Assembly: GCF_001685355.1 (NCBI RefSeq)
Contig: NZ_CP016438.1
Coordinates: 8,184,001-8,248,000, forward strand
Length of the DNA: 64,000 bases
Source of the DNA: Streptomyces lincolnensis
GTDB taxonomy: Bacteria > Actinomycetota > Actinomycetes > Streptomycetales > Streptomycetaceae
Direction: 5' to 3'
Shown here one piece after another: positions 15,311 through 26,201 of the stretch; within the stretch, counting starts at the first letter, position 1; each line of letters starts with the position of its first letter. The position numbers and the translations under genes were made by a program. Below the pieces are notes generated by a model that worked only from the letters and a program-made list of their open reading frames with translations, ran no database searches and was not told the DNA's origin.

Positions 15311-15840
15311 CCGCCCTCACCCTCACCCAGGGCGACATCACCCGCGTCAGCGCCGACGCGATCGTCAACGCGGCCAACTCCTCGCTGCTGGGCGGCGGCG
15401 GGGTCGACGGGGCCATCCACCGGCGGGGCGGTCCGGCGATCCTCGCGGACTGCCGCAGACTCCGGGCCGGTCACTACGGCAAGGGCCTCCCCACCGGCCA
15501 GGCCGTCGCGACGACCGCGGGTGAGCTGGACGCCCGCTGGGTGATCCACACGGTCGGTCCGCGGTACAGCCAACAGGAGGATCGCTCCGAGCTGTTGGCG
15601 TCCTGCTATCGCGCGTCCCTGCGTGTCGCCGACGAGCTGGGCGCCCGTACGGTCGCGTTCCCCGCCGTGTCCGCCGGGATCTACGGCTGGCCGATGGACG
15701 ATGCGGCGAGGATCGCGGTGGAGACGGTACGGAGCACGCGGACCGCCGTCGAAGAGGTCAGGTTCGTCCTCTTCGACGAGCGGTCCCACGAGGCGTTCGC
15801 CGCGCGGCTTCGCACGACTAGCCGTGATAGCCGTACCTGA
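15307..15840 (+). CDS. Macrodomain protein, O-acetyl-ADP-ribose deacetylase type
   Basis: A 177-aa stand-alone macrodomain (MacroD/YmdB type). It shows the ADP-ribose pocket motifs GDIT (9-12), [20 protein letters not shown] (~18-37), an HTVGP strand and [13 protein letters not shown], including the catalytic-loop Asn and Gly-rich stretch. It should remove ADP-ribose from acidic side chains or hydrolyse O-acetyl-ADP-ribose made by sirtuins. The start overlaps the oxidoreductase stop (ATGA), so both are translated together. Its last 23 bp overlap the convergent sulfotransferase gene. Confidence 0.92.
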
Positions 15841-16732
15841 GCATCAGGGGCGCCACCCCGGCGAAGGCCGCCAGCTTCCCGGGCCGCGACATGCTGTCGC
15901 GCCAGGGCTCGTGGCGCTTGATCTCCACGCGGCCCTGTTGCAGGCGGTCGGGGTTGCCGGTGATGGTGTGGTTGGTGCCGAGCAGGACGGAGGAGTCCTC
16001 GTCGAACCCGATCGCCGAGATATCCTCGTGTCCCGTGAACCGGGCGATCTTCCCGGTGACCGCGCGTGGCCGCCGGACGAAGTCCTCGTAGCGGATCCGC
16101 AGATACCGTCCGCCGCCCAGTGACCGGCCCACGGCCTCCGACGCCAGGTTGAATCCCGCCCAGTAGGACAGGGTCCTCGCCGCACTCATCCGCTCCAGGT
16201 ACTGCTTCGGCGACAGGTACGACGACACGGTGGCCCGCGGGTCGCGCACGATGTGCAGCAGCCGGACGTCGAGGTCCTGACGCCGGGCGAGCACCGCCGC
16301 GTCCGCCGCGTTCTTCGAACTGTCGATGATCAGCCCCGGGCCGTTCGCGGCCGTGATGCCGTGATGGACCGCGGCGATCGCGTCACTGAGTTCACCCACC
16401 TCGGCCGGGGCGTCCCTGCGTCCGCGCGACTCCGCCAGGCGCGCGGCGGTGTGACGCGTCCGCAGGTGACGTTCCTGAAGTCCCCACAGCCGTCGGGCCT
16501 TTCGGTCGTCCACCTCGCCGAGATGACCGGACCACACCTCGCACTTCAGCAGGTCCAGTCCGCAGCCGCACAAGGAGTTCGTACCGTCCCGCAGGAGTGC
16601 GTTCTTCCACAGGAAGTACCGCTCACCGATGTGCACCGCGCCCGGCAGTTCGTTGAGGACGTTGCCGACGAAGGTGCTGCCACAGCGCATCATGCCCGTG
16701 ATGTACAGGATCTGCGGCTTGCCGGCGGGCAC
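15818..16732 (-). CDS. PAPS-dependent sulfotransferase, last gene of the encapsulin operon
   Basis: A 304-aa sulfotransferase. The 5'-phosphosulfate loop is ITGMMRCGSTFVGNVL (residues 11-26) and the 3'-phosphate-binding element is RDPRATVSSYLS (163-174). The middle contains a Cys-rich segment (C55, C57, C64) found in many bacterial small-molecule or carbohydrate sulfotransferases. It lies 3 bp after the shell-protein stop, so the two are tightly coupled. CysC, CysD and CysN of the same operon would make its PAPS donor. The acceptor is unknown. Its 3' end overlaps the macrodomain gene on the other strand. Confidence 0.9.
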   Translation of the reverse strand: MPAGKPQILYITGMMRCGSTFVGNVLNELPGAVHIGERYFLWKNALLRDGTNSLCGCGLDLLKCEVWSGHLGEVDDRKARRLWGLQERHLRTRHTAARLAESRGRRDAPAEVGELSDAIAAVHHGITAANGPGLIIDSSKNAADAAVLARRQDLDVRLLHIVRDPRATVSSYLSPKQYLERMSAARTLSYWAGFNLASEAVGRSLGGGRYLRIRYEDFVRRPRAVTGKIARFTGHEDISAIGFDEDSSVLLGTNHTITGNPDRLQQGRVEIKRHEPWRDSMSRPGKLAAFAGVAPLMLRYGYHG

Positions 16733-16735
16733 CGC

Positions 16736-17623
16736 TCAGTCCTCCTCGTGGTGGTGGAGGACGAAGTGCTGGGGAACGTGCACCGCGAGTCCCATCCTGG
16801 TGCGCGCGGTGATGATCCGCCGGTCCGCCGCCTGCGGGTCCTTGCTGAGCGTGAGCGTGGAGACGTTGGGATTGAGCAGGGTCGCGCCCGCGCGGAAGTC
16901 GCCGAGCAGCGCGCTGCCCCGGGGCATCATGCGGGTGCGCGACACGGTGACGCCCGCACTCTTGAACCTCTCCAGGAACCCGTTCTCCGCGGCGAGCCAG
17001 TACAGCTCCGGGTGGATGACGATGCCGTCGCAGGAGCCGCCGGTCTCCTCGACCTCGCACGCGGCGAGGGACAGTGCCCGGAAGACGTCCCCACGGCCGG
17101 ACTGGGTGCGCAGGCCCTTCATGTTGAGCAGGCCCTCGACGGCGCCGTCCTTGCTGCCGTACAGCAGGATCTCGTTCTCCTGGGTCCACATGCGGACGAA
17201 CATGCGGTAGTCGATGAAGCTGGCCAGTAATCCGGGCTTGCGGACGAACTCCACGGGCACGTTCAGCGCCATCTCCACGTCGGTGAAGCCGGCCGTCCGC
17301 AGGGCCGAGCCGAAGGTGGACTCCGGCGTCGCCTTGTACGCGATGCCGCTCGGTGCCACATCCACCCGGGTGAACTCCTCCAGGTAGTCGCCGTGTCCCT
17401 CGCGGACCCGGCCCACCTTGAGCAGGTGCCGGACCATGTAGCGGGGCCGGGTCTTCAACAGGGGGAAGGACGCGGGGAGGTAGGCGTGGAACGGGACGAC
17501 GACCTCGTCCTCGTCGGTCCTCGACGCGACGCAGCGCGCGAAGTCCTCGCCGGGGGTGAGGTTCTCGTTGTACGAGTCCTCGTAGGGGATCTCTATCTCA
17601 CTGCCGAGCTGCTGGGTGGTCAT
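16736..17623 (-). CDS. HK97-fold encapsulin-like shell protein (family 3 / natural-product encapsulin type)
   Basis: A 295-aa protein with the layout of an HK97-type capsid. It has an N-arm and E-loop-like region to ~110, then a spine helix ~130-150 (LASFIDYRMFVRMW) leading into ILLYGSKDGAVEGLLN (152-167), the position where encapsulins and phage capsids have G-x-G...GLL. GDVFRALSLAACEVEE (178-192), IVIHPELYWLAAEN (201-214), MMPRGSALLGDFRAGA (232-247) and RTRMGLAVHVPQHFVL (274-289) follow as in capsid A-domains. No portal, terminase, protease or tail genes are near. Location inside a biosynthetic operon matches the actinobacterial natural-product encapsulins. ATG at 17623 chosen for GGAGACGAG before it. 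Confidence 0.83.
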   Translation of the reverse strand: MTTQQLGSEIEIPYEDSYNENLTPGEDFARCVASRTDEDEVVVPFHAYLPASFPLLKTRPRYMVRHLLKVGRVREGHGDYLEEFTRVDVAPSGIAYKATPESTFGSALRTAGFTDVEMALNVPVEFVRKPGLLASFIDYRMFVRMWTQENEILLYGSKDGAVEGLLNMKGLRTQSGRGDVFRALSLAACEVEETGGSCDGIVIHPELYWLAAENGFLERFKSAGVTVSRTRMMPRGSALLGDFRAGATLLNPNVSTLTLSKDPQAADRRIITARTRMGLAVHVPQHFVLHHHEED

Positions 17624-17700
17624 CTCGTCTCCGATGGGGGTGAGGTGGAACAGGTCAGGGGTGCGGTCGTTCGGGGACGGGCCGCGCATCGGTAGCCGGC

Positions 17701-18849
17701 TCAGCCGGTGACGCGCGCCGCGTACGCGCGGTACTTGGCGTCGAGCTCCTCGGCCCAGTCCGCGGACTCCGCCAGCGGCATGGTCCGGCACTCGTAGCCG
17801 AGGAGCCTCTTCATGATCGACATCTCGCGTTCGGCGAAGGTCACCGTCCCGTCGTCGTCGATACGGTCGATGCCGTCCGCCCGCTGGCACTCCTCGTTGA
17901 TCGCGACGGCGGTGTCCACCGGCATCCCGTCCGGCAGATCCAGGGCCGGGCCGTCCCGGCCGACCCGCACCGGGTAGCCGCCGGGCAGCCCGTTCGGGGC
18001 GGGGGCGTGGGCCCGCACACCGCTGTCGGTCGCCATCGCGTGCAGGATGCGCATCGCCGAGGAGGCGGTGAGCAATTGGCCGGCGTCTCCGCCGAGCCTG
18101 CGCAGCCGGCCGCTGAGGTGCGCGAAGACCTCCCCGTGCGGAATGTCGTCGAGAGGCTTGCCGTGCGCGGTCGCCGACATGTGGTAGCGCCCGTTGCCCT
18201 CGTTGCCGAACCGGGGGACGTAGTGGCTGAAGTAGTGCTGGGCGACCAGGCGCAGTTCCACCGACGACGGATCGACGCCCGCCTCAATGGCGTAGCCGAA
18301 GGTCAGCGCCGGGATGATGTTGGCGACGTTGCCGATGCCCGCCGTGGGGGCCAGCCCGACCTTGTCCAGGATCGGGCCGACCGCGTCCGGGAAGGCCGCG
18401 TTGAGCACCTTCGGTGAGGTGCCGGATTCGCGGACCGCCGCCGCGAGGCGGTGGTTCAGCGTCAGGTGCATGGGCAGCCAGGGGCCGAACTGGGCCTCGT
18501 CCAGCGCCTCGAAGTGCTCCTTGGGCAGCTTCGTGATGATCCGCCACGACTGCAGGGACGCCGCCATGAAGACGATGTCCGGCCGCACCCGCGCCAGAGT
18601 CCCGGCGGTCGCGGCGATGTCGTCGAGGTCGATCCGTTCGACGCTCACCTCCGGGATCAGACCGAGGTTCGTCGCGGTGAACCGCGCGAGGTTCACCGTC
18701 CTGGTCATCTTCTCCACGTCCCGGCCGGTCAGCACGACCCGGTTGGTGTCCGGTGTGTGCAGCAGCATGCTGAGCAGCCGCGCGGCCAGGTCGCCGCAGC
18801 CCACCACCATGATGAGCGGCTTCTCGCGGTCCGGATGGTCCAGGGACAT
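17701..18849 (-). CDS. NAD(P)-binding Rossmann dehydrogenase of uncertain family (encapsulin operon)
   Basis: A 382-aa protein. It begins with a Rossmann dinucleotide site, IMVVGCGDLAARLLSMLL (residues 13-30), followed by VVLTGRD at the end of beta-2 and PDIVFMAASLQSW at beta-4. The arrangement VLNAAFPDAVGPIL, then GIGNVANIIPALTFG, recalls lactate/malate dehydrogenase or saccharopine-dehydrogenase-like folds, but the family catalytic motifs are not obvious. A conserved-looking HYFSHYVPRFG may contribute to the active site. It probably performs a redox step on the sugar-derived intermediate made with the transaldolase. ATG at 18849 has GGAAGGAC upstream; 32 bp separate it from the transaldolase. 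Confidence 0.72.
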   Translation of the reverse strand: MSLDHPDREKPLIMVVGCGDLAARLLSMLLHTPDTNRVVLTGRDVEKMTRTVNLARFTATNLGLIPEVSVERIDLDDIAATAGTLARVRPDIVFMAASLQSWRIITKLPKEHFEALDEAQFGPWLPMHLTLNHRLAAAVRESGTSPKVLNAAFPDAVGPILDKVGLAPTAGIGNVANIIPALTFGYAIEAGVDPSSVELRLVAQHYFSHYVPRFGNEGNGRYHMSATAHGKPLDDIPHGEVFAHLSGRLRRLGGDAGQLLTASSAMRILHAMATDSGVRAHAPAPNGLPGGYPVRVGRDGPALDLPDGMPVDTAVAINEECQRADGIDRIDDDGTVTFAEREMSIMKRLLGYECRTMPLAESADWAEELDAKYRAYAARVTG

Positions 18850-18881
18850 CTGTCCGTCCTTCCTTCCTGTCGGTGGGCTGG

Positions 18882-20195
18882 TCAGGAGCGGCGTCCGCCC
18901 GCGTACCCGGCGTTCCGCACGGACACGGGCAGTTCGTCGATGTGGTGCTCTATGAAGTCGATCAGCCGGCGCGTGTTCTGGTTCACCTCGGATCGGGTGG
19001 TGACGAAGGCGCCGTGATCGGCGAACTGCTCGGGCCGCATACCGTCCGGTTCGACGGCCCGCCGGAAGTACGGCAGCCGGTTGAGCCGGGCCAGGACGTC
19101 CGGGGGCACCGGCTGGTCGATCGCGTCCGGGGCGAAGCCGACCAGGTCCTCCTCGCGTCGCATGGTCGCCTCGACGAAGGCCGGCTTGCAGGTGTAGGCG
19201 ATGTCCGCCCCGGCCGTCTGCTCCAGATGCATGCTCACCACGTCCGTGCCGACGCGCGGGTCCTCGACCTCCAGGCTGGACAGCAGCATCTTCACCGGGT
19301 GGTGACGGGTCCCGAGGATCTGCTGGATCCGCTTCAGCACCGCGACCTCCGCCCAGCGCACGTCCAGCGGACCGAGCTCGACACCGACCTCCTCGGCGTC
19401 CTTGAGCAGGTCGCCGTTCGAGCCGTAGCGGCCGATCATGTGTGTGATCACCGCACGCCAGCGGTCGGTGCCGATGCCGGCCCGCTGCGCCGCCGCGAGT
19501 CCGTCCTCCACCGCGCGAACGCAGGCCAGGAACTGCGGCACCGTGTAGGTGAGCGTGTTGTTGATCGAGACGGCCCTGGCGACCAGTTCCCTGATCACCT
19601 CGTACCCCGCGGGCGTGCCCGGCACCTTGACCATTACGTTGGGGCTCTGCTGGGCCAGGGTGAGCGCCTCGTCGAGCATCTTGTCCGGGTCGAACATGCT
19701 GCGCGGGTCGAGCTGGGCCGACACCCAGCCGTACCGGCCGTCGGTCTGCTGCCACATCGGCACCATGGCGATCGCCGACTGCGCGACGACCTCGCGGTAG
19801 ATCAGGCGGAACACCGACTCCGGGTCGAACGTCTTCTGCTGTGTGGCCTGCCGCCGGACCTCGCGGGACCACTTCTGGGGCGCGTTGAGGACGCTCTTGG
19901 CGATGAGTGACGGATTCGTCGTCACCCCGCGCACTAAGGACCCCTCGGGGTCGTTCGGTGTCATGAACCGCTCGAACTGGGCGGCCCATCGCCTGCGAAC
20001 CGCCGGACCGGGAGCACGGCTGAGCACCTCGTCCCGCCAGGCCGGAAAGTCCAGGGGCGGGGAGTCCCACCAGATCTCGGCGGAGCGGTTGGTCCGCTGG
20101 AGCCTTTCCAGAACGCTCAGGCCGGTGGAGCCGTCGAGGTCCCGGGCCGGCCCTGCGGCGGGCGCACGGTCGGGGGGTCGGTGCAGTACGGACAT
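18882..20195 (-). CDS. Transaldolase (encapsulin operon), with N-terminal extension
   Basis: A 437-aa transaldolase-family enzyme that would transfer a dihydroxyacetone unit between sugar phosphates. GVTTNPSLIAKS (90-101) is the family N-terminal signature, and K190 in NVMVKVPGT is the expected Schiff-base lysine. SINNTLTYTVPQF and a C-terminal VVSMHLEQTAGAD complete the barrel. It is longer than usual enzymes (~320-390 aa), with ~30 extra N-terminal residues rich in Pro/Ala/Asp that look disordered. Housekeeping transaldolase normally sits with transketolase and zwf; here it is in a secondary-metabolic operon. It overlaps the HAD gene stop by 1 nt (TGATG). Confidence 0.9.
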   Translation of the reverse strand: MSVLHRPPDRAPAAGPARDLDGSTGLSVLERLQRTNRSAEIWWDSPPLDFPAWRDEVLSRAPGPAVRRRWAAQFERFMTPNDPEGSLVRGVTTNPSLIAKSVLNAPQKWSREVRRQATQQKTFDPESVFRLIYREVVAQSAIAMVPMWQQTDGRYGWVSAQLDPRSMFDPDKMLDEALTLAQQSPNVMVKVPGTPAGYEVIRELVARAVSINNTLTYTVPQFLACVRAVEDGLAAAQRAGIGTDRWRAVITHMIGRYGSNGDLLKDAEEVGVELGPLDVRWAEVAVLKRIQQILGTRHHPVKMLLSSLEVEDPRVGTDVVSMHLEQTAGADIAYTCKPAFVEATMRREEDLVGFAPDAIDQPVPPDVLARLNRLPYFRRAVEPDGMRPEQFADHGAFVTTRSEVNQNTRRLIDFIEHHIDELPVSVRNAGYAGGRRS

Positions 20196-20956
20196 CAGGG
20201 CATCCCTTCCAGGGGTGCTAATGGGGGACTGGTGTGGTCGGGGAGCGTCGAGCGCCATCTGCGCAGCAATGCCGGCAGCTCTCGCATGGAGGTGAACGAA
20301 GTGACGGGATTCCGGGGTTCTTCGGCCCTGCCGGGGGTCCCGGCCGCCTCGTCGACGGCCACTGCGTCGACGGTCGCCTCGTCGACGGCCGGGGCTCCGT
20401 CCGGCGCGTAGGCGAAGACCGTCATCCCCGCGCGTATCCCCGCCCGTACGCCCGGTGCGCTGTCCTCCACGACCGCGCACCGTTCCGGTGCGACGCCGTG
20501 CCGCGCGGCGGCGTGCAGGAACAGACCGGGGTCCGGCTTCCAGACCTTCACTTCGTAGGCGCTGTAGAGGCGGTCCTCCGGGAAGAAGCGCAGCAGCCCG
20601 GTGTGGCCGAGGACGTGCCGGATCTTCTGCATCGGTGCGCTGGAGGCGCAGCAGAAGGGGGGATCCATCGCGGTGAGCACGTCCTCGATCCCGTCTATGG
20701 CGACGAGGTCCCGGTCGAACGCGTCCGTGCAGCGTTTCCGGAATTCCGGGACGAAGCCCTCGGGGAGTTCCCGGCCGACCATCTCGCTCAGTTCGGCCGT
20801 CCATTCGGCCACCTTGCGGCCCTGGATGAACGCGAGCGCGGAGTCACCGGTGAAGGACGCGCCGTATTCCCGTGCCATGGTCCGCATGACCTGGGCGGAC
20901 AGGGTCTCGCTGTCCACCAGGACGCCGTCGCAGTCGAAGATCACCAAGTGGGACAT
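20195..20956 (-). CDS. HAD-superfamily phosphatase (encapsulin operon), with disordered C-terminal tail
   Basis: A 253-aa HAD hydrolase of the beta-phosphoglucomutase/phosphatase subfamily. Motif I is FDCDGVLVDSE (residues 6-16), motif II CCASSAPMQKI, motif III Lys in VKVWKPDPGLFL, and motif IV AVVEDSAPGV. The nucleophile and acid/base pair DxD is intact. After ~185 residues the core gives way to a low-complexity acidic stretch and a proline-rich end (SPPLAPLEGMP), atypical for the family. It may dephosphorylate the transaldolase product. ATG at 20956 was chosen (GGGG 8 nt upstream); 20962 and GTG 20965 are alternatives. Confidence 0.87.
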   Translation of the reverse strand: MSHLVIFDCDGVLVDSETLSAQVMRTMAREYGASFTGDSALAFIQGRKVAEWTAELSEMVGRELPEGFVPEFRKRCTDAFDRDLVAIDGIEDVLTAMDPPFCCASSAPMQKIRHVLGHTGLLRFFPEDRLYSAYEVKVWKPDPGLFLHAAARHGVAPERCAVVEDSAPGVRAGIRAGMTVFAYAPDGAPAVDEATVDAVAVDEAAGTPGRAEEPRNPVTSFTSMRELPALLRRWRSTLPDHTSPPLAPLEGMP

Positions 20957-21017
20957 GCTCATCACCCCATGCGTGAGATGGCGAAACGTGGCTGGCGAAG
21001 TGGGAGGTGGCGACGGG

Positions 21018-22262
21018 TCAGCACACCATCCCGGCCGTGACGGTCGTGCCGTCGTCGGGGGCGATGAGCAGGAAGGAACCGGTGCGCCGTGAGTCGGCGT
21101 AGAGGTCGACGGGCAGCGGTTCGGACAGCCGCAGCACCACCCGGCCGATGTCGTTGGCCGCCAGGTGTCCGGGAGCCGGGTGCTGGGAGAGGTCGTCCAG
21201 CGCGAGGCGGGACGGGATCTCCTCGACGACGGCCCTGACGGTCCGGGTCGTGTGCTTGAGCAGCACCCGGGAGCCGGGTTCGAGCGGGGTGTCGTGCAGA
21301 TGGCAGACGGTCGCGGTCAGATTCCGCGTCGGCGTCACCGAGGCGTCCTCGGGCACGATCATGTCACCGCGGGAGACGTCCGGATCGTCGGTCAGCCGGA
21401 CGGTGACCGACTGGGGAGCCCGGACCAGGTCGACGGACCGGCCGAGTACGTCGAGGCCGGCGATGGTGCTGCGGCGCCCACTCGGCAGGACCGTCACGGG
21501 CTGGCCCACCCGCAGCACACCGGAGGCCACCTGGCCCGCGCAGCCGCGGCCGGAGGGCTCCTCGGGGGCCGCGGGGATGACGTACTGGACCGGGAACCGG
21601 GCCACCTCGCGCCTCGGGTCGTGGTCGACGTCCACGCTCTCCAGGTGCCCGAGCACCGTCGGGCCGCCGTACCAGGGCATGTTCGGCGAGGCGGTCACCA
21701 CGTTGTCGCCGTGCAGCGCGGAGATGGGAACGGCGGTGATCTCGGGGACCCCGAGAGAGGCGGCGTAGGCACCGAACTCCTCGGCGACGCGGCCGAAGAC
21801 CGTCTCGTCGTGGTCGACCAGGTCCATCTTGTTGACGGCCAGCACCACGTGCGGGACCCGCAGCAGCGCGGCCACCGCGGCGTGCCGGCGCGTCTGCTCG
21901 ACCACGCCGGCCCGCGCGTCCACCAGGACGACGGCCAGCTCGGCGGTCGAGGCGCCGGTGACCATGTTGCGGGTGTACTGCACATGCCCCGGTGTGTCGG
22001 CCAGGATGAACCGGCGGCGCGGGGTGGCGAAATAACGGTGGGCGACGTCGATGGTGATGCCCTGCTCCCGCTCGGCGCGCAGGCCGTCGGTGAGCAGCGC
22101 GAGGTCCGGAGTGTCCTTGCCGCGGGTGCGGGAGGCGTGTTCGACGGCTTCCAGCTGGTCGGCGAGGACCGACTTGGAGTCGTGCATCAGTCGTCCGACC
22201 AGGGTGGACTTGCCGTCGTCGACGGAGCCCGCGGTGGCGAACCGAAGTGTGTCGACGGTCAT
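21018..22262 (-). CDS. cysN: Sulfate adenylyltransferase large subunit, GTPase (CysN)
   Basis: A 414-aa EF-Tu-like GTPase that drives ATP sulfurylase (sulfate + ATP to APS). G1 GSVDDGKST (12-20), G3 DTPGH (89-93) and G4 NKMD (144-147) are intact, and two beta-barrel domains follow. There is no fused APS-kinase domain; a separate CysC is encoded two genes upstream. Two bases separate it from CysD. Being in one operon with a sulfotransferase argues for dedicated PAPS supply rather than cysteine synthesis. Confidence 0.93.
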   Translation of the reverse strand: MTVDTLRFATAGSVDDGKSTLVGRLMHDSKSVLADQLEAVEHASRTRGKDTPDLALLTDGLRAEREQGITIDVAHRYFATPRRRFILADTPGHVQYTRNMVTGASTAELAVVLVDARAGVVEQTRRHAAVAALLRVPHVVLAVNKMDLVDHDETVFGRVAEEFGAYAASLGVPEITAVPISALHGDNVVTASPNMPWYGGPTVLGHLESVDVDHDPRREVARFPVQYVIPAAPEEPSGRGCAGQVASGVLRVGQPVTVLPSGRRSTIAGLDVLGRSVDLVRAPQSVTVRLTDDPDVSRGDMIVPEDASVTPTRNLTATVCHLHDTPLEPGSRVLLKHTTRTVRAVVEEIPSRLALDDLSQHPAPGHLAANDIGRVVLRLSEPLPVDLYADSRRTGSFLLIAPDDGTTVTAGMVC

Positions 22263-22264
22263 GG

Positions 22265-23215
22265 CTAGAAGTACCCCTCGCGCTTGCGGTCCTCCATGGC
22301 GGCCTCGGACATCTTGTCGTCGGCCCGGGTGGCGCCGCGCTCGGTCAGCCGGGCCACGGCGATCTCCTCGATGACCCGCTCGACGGTGTCGGCGTCCGAG
22401 TCGACCGCTCCGGTGCAGGACATGTCGCCCACGGTGCGGTAGCGCACCCGGCGGGTCGCGGTCCGTTCGCCCTCCTTGGGGCCGCCCCACTCACCGGGGG
22501 CGAGCCACATGCCGTCGCGGAAGAAGAGGAATCGTTCATGCGCGTAGTAGATCGCCGGCAGTTCGATCCTCTCGCGCGCGATGTACTGCCACACGTCGAG
22601 CTCGGTCCAGTTCGACAGCGGGAAGACCCGCGTGTGTTCGCCGGGGGAGCACCGGCCGTTGTACAGCTGCCACAGCTCCGGCCGCTGCCGGCGCGGATCC
22701 CAGCCGCCGAACTCGTCGCGCAGCGAGAACACCCGCTCCTTGGCGCGCGCCTTCTCCTCGTCCCGGCGTCCGCCGCCGAACACCGCGTCGTGGCGGCCCT
22801 CGCCGATGGCGTGCAGCAGCGGCACGGTCTGGAGGGGGTTGCGGGTCCCGTCCGGGCGCTCACGCAGCTCACCGGAGTCGATGAAGTCCTGCACGTGGGC
22901 CACCCGCAGCCGCAGTCCGTGTTCCTCCACGGTGCGGTCCCGGTACTCCAGCACCTCGGGGAAGTTGTGTCCGGTGTCCACATGGAGCAGCCCGAAGGGC
23001 AGCGGCGCGGGCGCGAACGCCTTGAGCGCCAGGTGCAGCATCACGGCGGAGTCCTTGCCGCCCGAGAAGAGGATCACCGGGCGCTCCAGCTCCCCGGCCA
23101 CCTCCCGGAAGATGTGCACCGCCTCCGCCTCCAGGATGTCCAGGTGCGTCAGCGTGTGGAGGCCGGCGCCGTCCGCCGTCCGGTCCTCGGCCGTCCGTGT
23201 CGTCGTGGTGGTCAT
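22265..23215 (-). CDS. cysD: Sulfate adenylyltransferase small subunit (CysD)
   Basis: A 316-aa PP-loop ATP pyrophosphatase subunit that binds ATP and sulfate. The PP-loop SGGKDSAVML is at residues 51-60; LLHVDTGHNFPEV, FGGGRRDEEKARAKERVFS and the C-terminal RKREGYF are diagnostic of CysD. Its start overlaps the CysC stop by 4 nt (ATGA). An N-terminal Thr-rich 15-residue stretch is slightly longer than usual. Together with CysN it makes APS. Confidence 0.95.
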   Translation of the reverse strand: MTTTTTRTAEDRTADGAGLHTLTHLDILEAEAVHIFREVAGELERPVILFSGGKDSAVMLHLALKAFAPAPLPFGLLHVDTGHNFPEVLEYRDRTVEEHGLRLRVAHVQDFIDSGELRERPDGTRNPLQTVPLLHAIGEGRHDAVFGGGRRDEEKARAKERVFSLRDEFGGWDPRRQRPELWQLYNGRCSPGEHTRVFPLSNWTELDVWQYIARERIELPAIYYAHERFLFFRDGMWLAPGEWGGPKEGERTATRRVRYRTVGDMSCTGAVDSDADTVERVIEEIAVARLTERGATRADDKMSEAAMEDRKREGYF

Positions 23216-23820
23216 CGGGCGAGCCCCCTCTCGACGAGCAGCTCCGTTAGCGCGGCGGTGCACTCCTGGATGTCCTGACGGTGTGTCTCCAGCACCAGAT
23301 CGGGGCTCGCCGGTTCCTCGTAGGGGTCGTCGACACCGGTCAGGCCGGATAACTCACCGGCCGCCTGCCGCGCGTACAGGCCCTTCACGTCGCGGTCGGC
23401 ACACACCCGGGAGGGGGTGGCGACGTACACCTCCAGATAGGGCGTCCCACTGCGCTCGTGGCGCTCGCGCACCGCCTCGCGGCTGTCCGCGTAGGGGGCG
23501 ATCACCGGCACCAGGACCAGAACGTCGTTTCGGGCGAGGATCTCCGCCACCAGTCCGGTGCGCCGCACGTTGCTGTCCCGGTCCTGCCGGGAGAAACCCA
23601 GCCCCTCCGAGAGCGAGCCGCGGATCTCGTCCCCGTCCAGCGTCTCCACCCTGCGATGCTCCTCCCGCAGCCGGTCCGCGACCGACATCGCGATCGTCGT
23701 CTTGCCCGAACTCGGCAGCCCCGTGAGCCACACCGTTCCACCGGGCCGGCACCTGCATATCGGACTCGTGCTCAAGTCGGTCACCTCACTGCTGTGATCG
23801 GTTCGCGGAAAGACGGCCAT
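23212..23820 (-). CDS. cysC: Adenylylsulfate kinase (CysC)
   Basis: A 202-aa APS kinase that phosphorylates APS to PAPS. The P-loop GLPSSGKTT is at residues 34-42; LDGDEIRGSLSEGLGFSRQD and DRDVKGLYARQAAGE follow as in the family. The N-terminus before WLTGLP is ~20 residues longer than typical, so a start at a downstream GTG (VTDLST, codon 13) is possible. It begins 9 bp after the MFS stop. With CysDN and the sulfotransferase it completes a sulfate-activation and transfer route. Confidence 0.93.
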   Translation of the reverse strand: MAVFPRTDHSSEVTDLSTSPICRCRPGGTVWLTGLPSSGKTTIAMSVADRLREEHRRVETLDGDEIRGSLSEGLGFSRQDRDSNVRRTGLVAEILARNDVLVLVPVIAPYADSREAVRERHERSGTPYLEVYVATPSRVCADRDVKGLYARQAAGELSGLTGVDDPYEEPASPDLVLETHRQDIQECTAALTELLVERGLAR

Positions 23821-23829
23821 CCGGTGCCA

Positions 23830-25119
23830 CTACCCCCGCACCGCGGAGCCGGATGCGGTCGTTTTGCGCCGTTTCGCCGGGTCCGGCCCGTGCGCGGCCC
23901 GGTAGGTGGTCCAGGCGAGGGTGAGCACCGCCGGCACGGCGGTCAGCAACAGCAGCTCCGAGGCCGGCACCACGTGCTCGATCACGGCCAGCAGATACGG
24001 CGCCCCGAAGCCGAGATAGGCGAACGCCTGGAAGATCGCGGTCAGCCGGCCCAGGTTCTCGGCGCTCGCCATGCGCTGCACCTCCATCAGGCCGCACACC
24101 AGGCAGCAGCCGTAGCCGGCGCCTAGCACCAGCGCGGCGATGCCGACGAGCCACCAGTGCACGGTCGTCGCGGCCAGCGCGCCGAGCAGCAGTCCGGCCA
24201 CCACGATGCTGAGCGAGGTGGCGATCAGACGGGGCTTGTCCGGGTGGTTGACCCGACGCGCCAGGGGCTGTACGGCGATGCCCGCGACCATGGTCAGCAT
24301 GGTCACGACCGCGCTGAACATCAGCGCGTTGTCGCCGAGCCGGTCCAGCACCAGACCGGGAAGGTAGGCCAGGGCGATCGAGGACGCGCCGAACACCCAG
24401 GGCGCCAGCGGCGCGATGACGCTCCAGAACCGGCGGCTGCTCGCCTCGGGCAGCCGCAGCGGGGACCAGAGCCTGGCCTCCTCGTTCGGCCGGTGCACCT
24501 CGGGGGTCCGCAGCACGAAGGGAACGGCCGCGAGGGTGAGTGCCACATGCGGCAGGTAGGAGCTGACCACCGGGTTCGGTGCCAGCTGCGCCAGCAGTCC
24601 CGCGATCAGCGGACCCACGGCGAAGCCGGTGGTCATCCCGATCGTCGCGCGGCGGGCGCCGGTGTGCTCGTCCTGACCGGAACCGCTGACGGTGAGTTCC
24701 TTGATCCACGCGGTGCCCGAGCTGAAGGCCGCCCCACTGGCGGCGCCGGCGACCAGCCGTCCGACGAACAGCCAGCTCAGCCCCGATCCGGCCAGCATCA
24801 GCAGTCCGCTGGCGAGCGCCGAGATGATCAGCGCCGGTACGAGCACCCGACGGCGGCCGTACCGGTCGGAGAAGGGGCCGCCGAGGAGCAGCCCGGGGAT
24901 CAGTCCGACCGCGTAGAGGGCGTAGGTCGCCTCCACCGTGGTCGTCGCGACGCCCAGTTCCGAGCGGTACATCAACAGCAGCGGGGCGAACTGGTTCGCG
25001 CCCCAGCCGACGGCCGCGACACCCAGGGCGATCGCCAGCCAGGCACGGCCGGCGGCCCCGGAGAGCCGTGTGTCCTCGCCGCGGGTCCCCCGGTACGTGT
25101 GTGCTGTCGGATTGCTCAT
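23830..25119 (-). CDS. MFS transporter, first gene of the encapsulin operon
   Basis: A 429-aa major-facilitator protein with twelve predicted membrane segments. The loop 2-3 motif GGPFSDRYGRRRVLVPALI (near 80-98) is intact, and motif C-like GLVAGAASGAAFSS-type helices follow. It heads the operon and is divergent from the GlxA-type regulator, a layout seen for product exporters. Export or self-resistance for the sulfated product is inferred; sulfate uptake is unlikely for MFS of this type. ATG at 25119 (MSNPTAH) was chosen over an upstream ATG that would run into the regulator promoter. Confidence 0.87.
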   Translation of the reverse strand: MSNPTAHTYRGTRGEDTRLSGAAGRAWLAIALGVAAVGWGANQFAPLLLMYRSELGVATTTVEATYALYAVGLIPGLLLGGPFSDRYGRRRVLVPALIISALASGLLMLAGSGLSWLFVGRLVAGAASGAAFSSGTAWIKELTVSGSGQDEHTGARRATIGMTTGFAVGPLIAGLLAQLAPNPVVSSYLPHVALTLAAVPFVLRTPEVHRPNEEARLWSPLRLPEASSRRFWSVIAPLAPWVFGASSIALAYLPGLVLDRLGDNALMFSAVVTMLTMVAGIAVQPLARRVNHPDKPRLIATSLSIVVAGLLLGALAATTVHWWLVGIAALVLGAGYGCCLVCGLMEVQRMASAENLGRLTAIFQAFAYLGFGAPYLLAVIEHVVPASELLLLTAVPAVLTLAWTTYRAAHGPDPAKRRKTTASGSAVRG

Positions 25120-25190
25120 GTCTACGACCCTGACGCGGGCCGGCGGTCTCCTCAACCGGCCGAAAGGACATCGAGCGTACAATTCGTGCC
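25120..25190. promoter_or_regulatory. Divergent promoter region, encapsulin operon / GlxA-type regulator
   Basis: Only 71 bp separate the two start codons. TACAAT at 25178-25183 is a near-consensus -10 for the regulator, placed so that transcription would begin at about its ATG (25191); no Shine-Dalgarno precedes that ATG. An inverted repeat GGCCGG...CCGGCC (12-nt spacer) lies at about 25139-25162 and could be the regulator's site. The operon promoter itself could not be defined. Confidence 0.5.
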
Positions 25191-26201
25191 ATGACCTCTG
25201 TGGCGCTGGCCGTGACCGACGGGATGCCTCTGTTCGAGCTGTCCATCCCCTGCACGATCTTCGGACCCGGAAATCCGGAGGCGGCCGGGGCCGGCTACGA
25301 GCTGGCCGTCTGTGCCTCCCCCGGGGCCAATGTCGGGGGCTGGCTGCGCTCCGAGGCGGCGCACACGCTGGACGACCTGATGAAGGCGGACACGGTGATC
25401 GTCCCGGCCTGTGACGAGGCCATGGAGCGGCCGCCCGCCGACCTGGTGGCCGCCGTACGAGCGGCGCACGACCGGGGCGCGCGGGTCGCCTCCATCTGCA
25501 CCGGGGCCTTCGTGCTGGCCGCCGCCGGACTGCTCGACGGGCGGCGCGCGACCACCCACTGGATGTACACCGGACGGCTGGCCGAGCGGTATCCGGAGGT
25601 CGAGGTGGACCCCGGTGTGCTGTACATCGACGACGGCGACGTGCTCACCTCCGCGGGCCAGGCCGCCGGGATCGACCTCTGCCTGCACATGGTCCGCAGC
25701 GACCACGGCGTGGTCATGGCCAACACCCTGGCCCGACGGCTCGTGGCGGCTCCGCACCGGGCGGGCGGACAGGCGCAGTTCATCGCCACCCCGCTGCCCG
25801 GGAGCGACGGCCAGGGCTCCGTCGGCGACCGGTACGGACTGTCCGCCCTGCTCGACCGGACGAGGGAGCGGCTCGACGAACCGGTCACGGTCGCCGAGCT
25901 CGCCCGCCGGGCGAACATGAGCCCGCGCCACTTCAGCCGCCAGTTCATCGCGCTCACCGGCACCAGCCCCCTTCAGTGGCTGCTCGCCCAGCGCATCCGT
26001 CGCGCACAGGAACTGCTGGAGACCACCGACGAGAGCATCGAGCACATCGCCGCCCAGGTCGGCATGGGGACGGCGACGACCTTGCGCCGCAACTTCAACC
26101 GCGTCGTCGGCGTGTCACCGGCCGCCTACCGGCGCGCCTTCACCGAGTCCACCGGTCTGCGGGCCGACGCCGACCAGGCCCCCGCCGGACAGGCCGACTG
26201 A
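25191..26201 (+). CDS. GlxA-type transcriptional regulator (DJ-1/PfpI domain + AraC HTH)
   Basis: A 336-aa regulator. Residues ~5-175 form a DJ-1/PfpI class-I-amidotransferase-like domain; ICTGAFVLAAAGLLDGRRAT holds the nucleophile-elbow Cys position. Residues ~225-325 form an AraC/XylS double HTH (VTVAELARRANMSPRHFSRQF and ATTLRRNFNRVVGVSPAAYRR). Relatives sense small nitrogenous metabolites. It is divergent from the MFS-cys-encapsulin operon and is the obvious pathway-specific regulator. The transcript is probably leaderless. Confidence 0.92.
   Translation: MTSVALAVTDGMPLFELSIPCTIFGPGNPEAAGAGYELAVCASPGANVGGWLRSEAAHTLDDLMKADTVIVPACDEAMERPPADLVAAVRAAHDRGARVASICTGAFVLAAAGLLDGRRATTHWMYTGRLAERYPEVEVDPGVLYIDDGDVLTSAGQAAGIDLCLHMVRSDHGVVMANTLARRLVAAPHRAGGQAQFIATPLPGSDGQGSVGDRYGLSALLDRTRERLDEPVTVAELARRANMSPRHFSRQFIALTGTSPLQWLLAQRIRRAQELLETTDESIEHIAAQVGMGTATTLRRNFNRVVGVSPAAYRRAFTESTGLRADADQAPAGQAD

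What the first reader, a model, noticed from the sequence alone, without database searches (positions are those of the whole stretch)
15818..26201. Encapsulin-type shell embedded in a self-contained sulfation operon
Seen: nine tightly packed minus-strand genes (MFS, CysC, CysD, CysN, HAD phosphatase, transaldolase, Rossmann dehydrogenase, HK97-fold protein, sulfotransferase) plus a divergent GlxA-type regulator. Five junctions overlap or have at most 9 bp between genes. Known: HK97-fold encapsulins of the 'natural product' group occur in actinobacterial biosynthetic clusters, sometimes with sulfotransferases. Inference: the shell houses part of a pathway that makes a sulfated, sugar-phosphate-derived metabolite and is fed by its own PAPS supply. 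The combination of full PAPS synthesis, transaldolase and shell in one operon is the strongest candidate here for an undescribed system.
Basis: partly seen in the sequence, partly recalled or inferred. Interest (0 to 1): 0.95.

Follow-up and report, generated by a model that had tools for sequence, protein, structure and literature searches.

The report
Virus-like shell in sugar-sulfation operon
A soil bacterium carries a conserved gene set in which a protein shell related to virus capsids sits beside enzymes that appear to build and sulfate a small sugar-like molecule, and close relatives of the pathway without the shell offer a natural way to find out what such shells are for.

The parts
15818..16732 (-). 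sulfotransferase (Sulfotransfer_3, 304 aa), directly downstream of the shell gene
   Evidence: Pfam PF13469 E 2.5e-13; same BLAST cluster in 25 of 37 shell loci; clade with the other four of this class 100/99
16736..17623 (-). Family 3 encapsulin shell protein, 295 aa
17701..18849 (-). LDH/MDH-fold dehydrogenase without a Pfam family (382 aa)
18882..20195 (-). Q-type transaldolase-like aldolase (437 aa): Schiff-base Lys kept, Glu96 to Gln, Phe178 to Met
   Evidence: PF00923 E 4.5e-28; residue comparison with E. coli TalB and FsaA and two canonical copies of the same genome
20195..20962 (-). HAD phosphatase (6-phosphogluconate-phosphatase/beta-PGM-like)
   Evidence: PF00702, PF13419; NF007854 155.5 bits, below its cut-off 211
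21018..22262 (-). CysN, sulfate adenylyltransferase large subunit (second full copy in the genome)
   Evidence: TIGR02034 506 bits vs cut-off 336; other copy at 7,908,183 of the chromosome
22265..23215 (-). CysD, sulfate adenylyltransferase small subunit
   Evidence: TIGR02039 435 bits vs cut-off 397
23212..23820 (-). CysC, adenylylsulfate kinase (makes PAPS)
   Evidence: TIGR00455 188 bits vs cut-off 139
23830..25119 (-). MFS transporter, probable exporter (start may be 25182)
   Evidence: PF07690 E 2e-34; same transporter cluster in all five loci of the class and no other of the 37
25191..26201 (+). divergent GlxA/FtrA-like AraC-family regulator
   Evidence: PF01965 + PF12833; NF006902 360 bits, below its cut-off 425; beside the MFS gene also in L002, L003, L060

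Best explanation
This is a biosynthetic operon of a distinct Family 3 encapsulin class. Shown: the shell gene is a Family 3 encapsulin by curated model and predicted fold, and this gene set recurs together. Inferred: the Q-type aldolase joins a C3 ketol unit (dihydroxyacetone, from a ketose phosphate or free) to an unidentified aldehyde; the HAD enzyme removes phosphate from a substrate or product; the LDH-fold dehydrogenase reduces a carbonyl to a hydroxyl; CysD/CysN/CysC make PAPS on site; the sulfotransferase, next to or inside the shell, sulfates that hydroxyl; the MFS protein exports the product; the GlxA-like protein regulates. The shell most likely houses the reductase and/or the sulfotransferase, because those two roles stay beside the shell in each class even when different protein families fill them.
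For: Curated model and fold. Of 37 Family 3 loci compared, a sulfotransferase lies within 3 genes of the shell in 35, a presumed carbonyl reductase in 34 and both in 32; of 201 genes more than 6 genes from the shell in the same stretches, 0 have a sulfotransferase within 3 genes. Sample members of each role were checked by Pfam: PF13469 or PF19798 sulfotransferases, SDR, AKR; the LDH-fold protein by its model. The five loci with aldolase and LDH-fold protein form one clade in the shell tree (36 rows, 100/100) and in the sulfotransferase tree (25 rows, 100/99). Lys, Asn, Asp and Thr of the aldolase site are kept. An extra cysN and two canonical transaldolases elsewhere suggest dedicated copies.
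Against: No terminal tag conserved through the class marks a cargo. The same core persists without a shell. The aldolase has Met where FSA has its Tyr and Gln where TalB has its Glu, so its acid/base and even its reaction are uncertain. No gene fixes the acceptor aldehyde. The Nocardia member is a long branch in both trees, and the program warns that such joins may be false. Two loci (L131, L132) have a sulfotransferase but no reductase within 3 genes, as does the damaged L067. Assembly and encapsulation are untested.
Confidence: 0.5

Rival explanations
1. Sulfate is a leaving group, not a product feature: the sulfotransferase activates a hydroxyl, which an internal nucleophile displaces to form a small strained ring (aziridine, epoxide, cyclic ether) or a substituted centre; the shell confines the reactive electrophile or its precursor.
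For: 14 of the 37 loci are of a class with LysX and transketolase, 12 of them with a LysW-like carrier called, resembling the gene set of diaminodihydroxyheptanoate pathways; a review states that this amino acid is sulfated and the sulfate displaced to give the aziridine (PMC9570651, passages; the primary JACS 2022 paper was not read). The window sulfotransferase is 44-53% identical to those of nine loci of that class. Transketolase there and aldolase here would both graft a ketol unit on an aldehyde.
Against: No aminotransferase, carrier protein or other amine source is among the ten genes of the window operon; nothing I read links the published reaction to a shell; product unknown.
Confidence: 0.22
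2. The shell houses the upstream carbon chemistry (aldolase, HAD) rather than sulfation; the shorter aldolase N-terminus of shell-less relatives reflects loss of a loading tag.
For: Aldolases of the window, S. lincolnensis L4, S. buecherae and G154 carry about 23-24 more N-terminal residues than shell-less ones, which mostly start with M followed by VLEELQ or similar.
Against: The extension shares no motif between the two pairs; P0243, whose contig length equals that of a shell homologue (P0007), has only about 10 extra; P0297 and P0303 have long N-termini with unknown shell status; other shell classes lack the aldolase.
Confidence: 0.13
3. The capsid-like protein no longer forms a closed shell; it acts as a scaffold or an enzyme partner.
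For: No row shown in the solved-structure searches is named a Family 3 encapsulin, and assembly is untested here.
Against: The predicted model aligns 247 of 295 residues with HK97 at 2.4 A, and 49 columns are invariant in 52 aligned sequences.
Confidence: 0.12
4. Prophage remnant capsid beside an unrelated operon.
For: HK97 fold; best PDB sequence hits are HK97 gp5.
Against: Above the Family 3 equivalog cut-off; only a weak PHROGs hit (E 0.37); no phage family in the Pfam and NCBIfam rows listed for the ten operon genes; the gene set is conserved from Streptomyces to Nocardia.
Confidence: 0.01

Closest known systems
Family 3 (natural product) encapsulins, Andreas and Giessen 2021 (PMC8346489; section 9 and passages read)
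   Same: Shell protein of the same curated family; Streptomyces among the main hosts; sulfotransferase and reductase neighbours; secondary-metabolism setting
   Different: Main text has no occurrence of 'transaldolase' or 'CysC' and names sulfotransferase, SDR, PKS, NRPS and carrier-protein neighbours; its figure panels and supplements could not be seen, so this class may be drawn there. The reductase here is LDH-fold, not SDR
Carrier-protein class of Family 3 loci (L054-L059, L068, L069, L071, L129-L133), resembling azinomycin/vazabitide precursor genes
   Same: Shell with sulfotransferase in 13 of 14 loci; at least one cys gene in 8 of 14 stretches; ketol-transfer enzyme
   Different: LysX and transketolase in 14 of 14, LysW called in 12; no Q-type aldolase, LDH-fold dehydrogenase or HAD of the window's types
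Shell-less HAD-aldolase-sulfotransferase-SDR-dehydrogenase-methyltransferase-MFS-cysCDN clusters (L096, L097, L100; partly seen in L095, L099)
   Same: Same aldolase subfamily (55-56% identity), LDH-fold dehydrogenase (64-67%), HAD and PAPS genes
   Different: No shell in the stretch; PF19798 (tested on L096) instead of PF13469 sulfotransferase; extra SDR and methyltransferase
E. coli TalB (transaldolase B) and FsaA (fructose-6-phosphate aldolase)
   Same: Schiff-base Lys, Asp17, Asn35, Thr156, Arg181, Ser226 equivalents
   Different: Gln at Glu96 as in FSA, but Met at Phe178/Tyr131; Arg228 equivalent is Glu in the window

Membership tests
Family 3 encapsulin | Score over the curated equivalog model NF041188 | tested here: met
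   335.4 bits vs 180, residues 24-287 against 1-266 of 266
Family 3 encapsulin | HK97 fold | tested here: met
Family 3 encapsulin | Embedded in biosynthetic genes, not in a prophage | tested here: met
   No phage family among the Pfam and NCBIfam rows listed for the ten operon genes; one weak PHROGs hit of the shell gene, E 0.37. Genes outside the operon were not scanned
Family 3 encapsulin | Self-assembly into an icosahedral shell | not testable with these tools
   -
Family 3 encapsulin | Dedicated cargo-loading signal | tested here: inconclusive
   No tail on the sulfotransferase of this class; aldolase N-terminal extension not conserved
Canonical transaldolase | Score over curated transaldolase models | tested here: not met
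   PRK03343 94.8 vs 367 bits; TIGR00876 79.3 vs 233.75
Canonical transaldolase | Acid/base Glu (TalB Glu96) | tested here: not met
   Gln in 120 of 120 homologues listed (1066 were found)
Fructose-6-phosphate aldolase | Gln59 with Tyr131; curated model | tested here: not met
   Gln present, but Met in 120 of 120 at the Tyr position; TIGR00875 39 vs 246 bits
Lactate/malate dehydrogenase superfamily | Fold | tested here: met
Lactate/malate dehydrogenase superfamily | Catalytic His, Asp and carboxylate-binding Arg | tested here: inconclusive
   Profile alignment with E. coli Mdh is weak (probability 0.3%, E 0.2); it places H205 at the presumed His, N177 near the Asp and P180 near the Arg; all three are invariant in 37 sequences (Mdh residue roles recalled)
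Carrier-protein (diaminodihydroxyheptanoate) pathway | LysW carrier, LysX ligase, transketolase | tested here: not met
   None called in the stretches of the five loci of the window class

The most novel reading that the evidence does not exclude
Family 3 shells are reaction chambers for sulfate-activation chemistry: a carbonyl is reduced, the new hydroxyl is O-sulfated from locally made PAPS, and the sulfate then leaves to give a reactive small molecule that the shell confines. The window operon would be the sugar-derived version, with a new aldolase type (neither transaldolase nor FSA) and a new LDH-fold sugar reductase.
Probability: 0.2. Interest if true: 0.88.

Novelty: new variant of a known kind. 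Interest (0 to 1): 0.62.

Why it matters
The 2021 paper states that the role of the Family 3 shell in its one experimentally studied cluster is unknown (PMC8346489, section 9), and no title listed by my ten paper searches reports a later experimental study (most subscription journals are not in that library). Two results make the question testable: the shell keeps a reductase and a sulfotransferase beside it although the protein families filling those roles change, and the same aldolase-dehydrogenase-HAD core exists with and without a shell, in two genomes (G025, G248) beside a separate shell cluster of another class. The operon is also compact (nine genes, no NRPS or PKS gene) and contains two enzyme subfamilies whose activities cannot be read from known relatives.

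Tried and rejected
Prophage capsid: rejected. Canonical pentose-phosphate transaldolase moved into the operon: rejected; two canonical copies lie elsewhere and the operon copy scores far below the curated cut-offs. Aldolase N-terminal extension as the loading tag: about 23-24 extra residues in four of five loci and about 15 in the fifth, but P0243 has only about 10 and no motif is shared. HAD C-terminal tail as tag: not conserved even between the window and S. lincolnensis L4. Loss of the phosphate-binding Arg228 as a family feature: rejected; Arg is present in 45 of 120 homologues. LDH catalytic-residue mapping: only weak profile support. Literature: ten searches; several lists were capped (15 of 59, 20 of 26). 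The phrase 'family 3 encapsulin' is in two held papers, both of 2021 (one read in part, the other not). In one search only one of seven listed papers holds 'transaldolase' (PMC8719888, not read). No supplement could be read, so absence from print is not shown.

Limits of the sample: the scans drew 392, 394 and 397 genomes, not all that exist. In some searches, 26 of 41 and 12 of 21 matching genomes were below the curated cut-off; of these I took only G145 and did not examine the rest. Of the 20 new genomes with a hit I fetched the 11 best; the nine left out scored E 2.0e-21 or weaker. 36 of the 37 shells pass the curated cut-off; L067 (G145) has a split gene whose called piece scores 170 vs 180, was assigned to its class by its sulfotransferase, and is absent from the 36-row shell tree. 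L060 has a split cysN. Both were counted as they stand. Near-copies (window/L003, L131/L132) are counted singly, so the loci are fewer than 37 independent events. Class labels are mine. Gene calls in the loci come from my own crude GC-frame caller, which writes the first residue as M, so starts are uncertain. Of the 17 genomes, L098 (G201) has the dehydrogenase at a contig start with unknown aldolase status, and four weak matches (G255, G033, G223, G158) were not examined. In the dehydrogenase tree the Nocardia members fall outside the Streptomyces/Amycolatopsis shell clade (some rows assigned only by equal contig length), so one or more shell gains or losses remain open.

Full report
WHAT IS THERE. 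The window lies in a 10.3-Mb single-contig chromosome at 8,184,001-8,248,000; the nearest named record is Streptomyces lincolnensis L4 (shell 98% identical). Nine minus-strand genes, 15818-25119, and a divergent regulator, 25191-26201, are there as described. Five of the eight junctions overlap or have at most 9 bp.

NEIGHBOURHOODS. I compared 37 shell loci: the window, three named genome contigs, 22 stretches, and 11. 36 of the 37 shells pass the curated cut-off. By gene content they sort into a carrier-protein/transketolase class (14), a class with DAO-type oxidoreductase, AMP-binding enzyme and aldo-keto reductase (10, of which L067 shows only the sulfotransferase and transporter), a DegT-aminotransferase/SDR class (7), the window class (5) and one orphan. 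The window class has in 5 of 5: shell, sulfotransferase, LDH-fold dehydrogenase, Q-type aldolase, HAD, CysD, CysN and its own MFS; CysC is separate in four and fused to CysN in Nocardia tenerifensis, where the order also differs. Shells of the class form one clade (36-row tree, 100/100), as do the sulfotransferases (25-row tree, 100/99); the Nocardia rows are long branches in both, which the program flags as unsure.

A COMMON TRIAD. A sulfotransferase lies within three genes of the shell in 35 of 37 loci (missing in L128 and L133), a presumed carbonyl reductase in 34 (missing in L067, L131, L132), both in 32; in a control, 0 of 201 genes lying more than six genes from the shell have a sulfotransferase within three genes. 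The sulfotransferases belong to two Pfam families: PF13469 (window, L004, L054, L073) and PF19798 (L061, L096). The reductases are SDR (L054), AKR (L061) or the LDH-fold protein; other loci were assigned to these by BLAST clusters. Andreas and Giessen already noted sulfotransferase-SDR pairs in many Family 3 clusters (PMC8346489, section 9); what is added is that the pairing survives replacement of both protein families. At least one cys gene occurs in 13 of 37 stretches, cysN in 11, so local PAPS supply is common but not general; some stretches end early, so these are lower bounds.

DEDICATED COPIES. The chromosome has another full cysN at 7.908 Mb and two canonical transaldolases at 2.657 and 8.481 Mb; that these serve housekeeping is inferred.

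A SHELL-LESS VERSION. Searching 295 genus genomes with the dehydrogenase gave 17 with a match at E <= 1e-20. Three have the shell operon (G000, G031, G154). Five (L095, L096, L097, L099, L100) have HAD-aldolase-sulfotransferase-SDR-dehydrogenase-methyltransferase with no shell in the stretch seen; L096, L097 and L100 also show MFS and cysC-D-N, L095 MFS and cysC. Of their genomes, G001, G044 and G119 are not among the 41 with any shell-model match, while G025 and G248 carry a separate shell cluster of another class. Their sulfotransferase is of the PF19798 type (tested on L096), the type that sits beside shells in the aldo-keto-reductase class (tested on L061). Four more (L101-L104) pair the dehydrogenase with a HAD gene without the aldolase, three of them near AMP-binding genes. 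One is unresolved and four weak matches were not examined.

CARGO. In six carrier-class loci the sulfotransferase has a variable, low-complexity C-terminal tail ending in a repeated peptide, RGEA[S/T/A] in four and WPGE[F/L]W in two, which looks like a loading tag; one more (L059) has a tail without it, six of the class have no such tail, and the window class has none. Aldolase N-terminal extensions are not conserved. The cargo is therefore unknown.

HOW IT PROBABLY WORKS. Ketol transfer to an aldehyde, phosphate removal, carbonyl reduction, PAPS formation and O-sulfation, with the shell around the last steps, then export. Each step is inferred from families; what is shown is shell family membership and the recurrence of the gene set. 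Retained sulfate (best reading) and sulfate as leaving group (rival, 0.22) cannot be separated by sequence.

NOVELTY. The shell family and its sulfotransferase neighbours are published. 'Transaldolase' does not occur in the main text of that paper; its figures and supplements were not available, and the window's shell may be among its 132. I therefore call it a new variant of a known kind.

Noticed in passing
L054:8330-9424, L055:10540-11562, L056:923-1972, L057:8477-9517, L058:8484-9506, L069:3590-4795: Sulfotransferases of carrier-class Family 3 loci carry low-complexity C-terminal tails ending in RGEA[S/T/A] (four) or WPGE[F/L]W (two): candidate cargo-loading peptides.
   Followed up: partly
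window 16736-17623, 18882-20195, 20195-20962, 23212-23820: Four genes of the operon each hold one TTA codon, rare in Streptomyces (recalled), which suggests bldA-dependent expression; in S. lincolnensis L4 cysC, aldolase and shell genes also have one, and in S. buecherae only HAD does among the genes called.
   Followed up: partly
L101-L104: The LDH-fold dehydrogenase is paired with a HAD gene and another conserved gene without the aldolase; in L101, L103 and L104 near AMP-binding genes.
   Followed up: no
L067 (G145): Shell gene split into two matches; described only.
   Followed up: no
L060: cysN called as two pieces; frame break or assembly error; described only.
   Followed up: no
L004:12713-14572: CysN-CysC fusion of 619 aa in Nocardia tenerifensis: GTP_EFTU and APS_kinase domains in one frame.
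   Followed up: yes
L070, L072, L073, L074, L136, L137, L138: A further Family 3 class with DegT aminotransferase, SDR, sulfotransferase and DAO-type oxidoreductase genes, and a methyltransferase in five of seven; shells with a long N-terminal stretch.
   Followed up: partly
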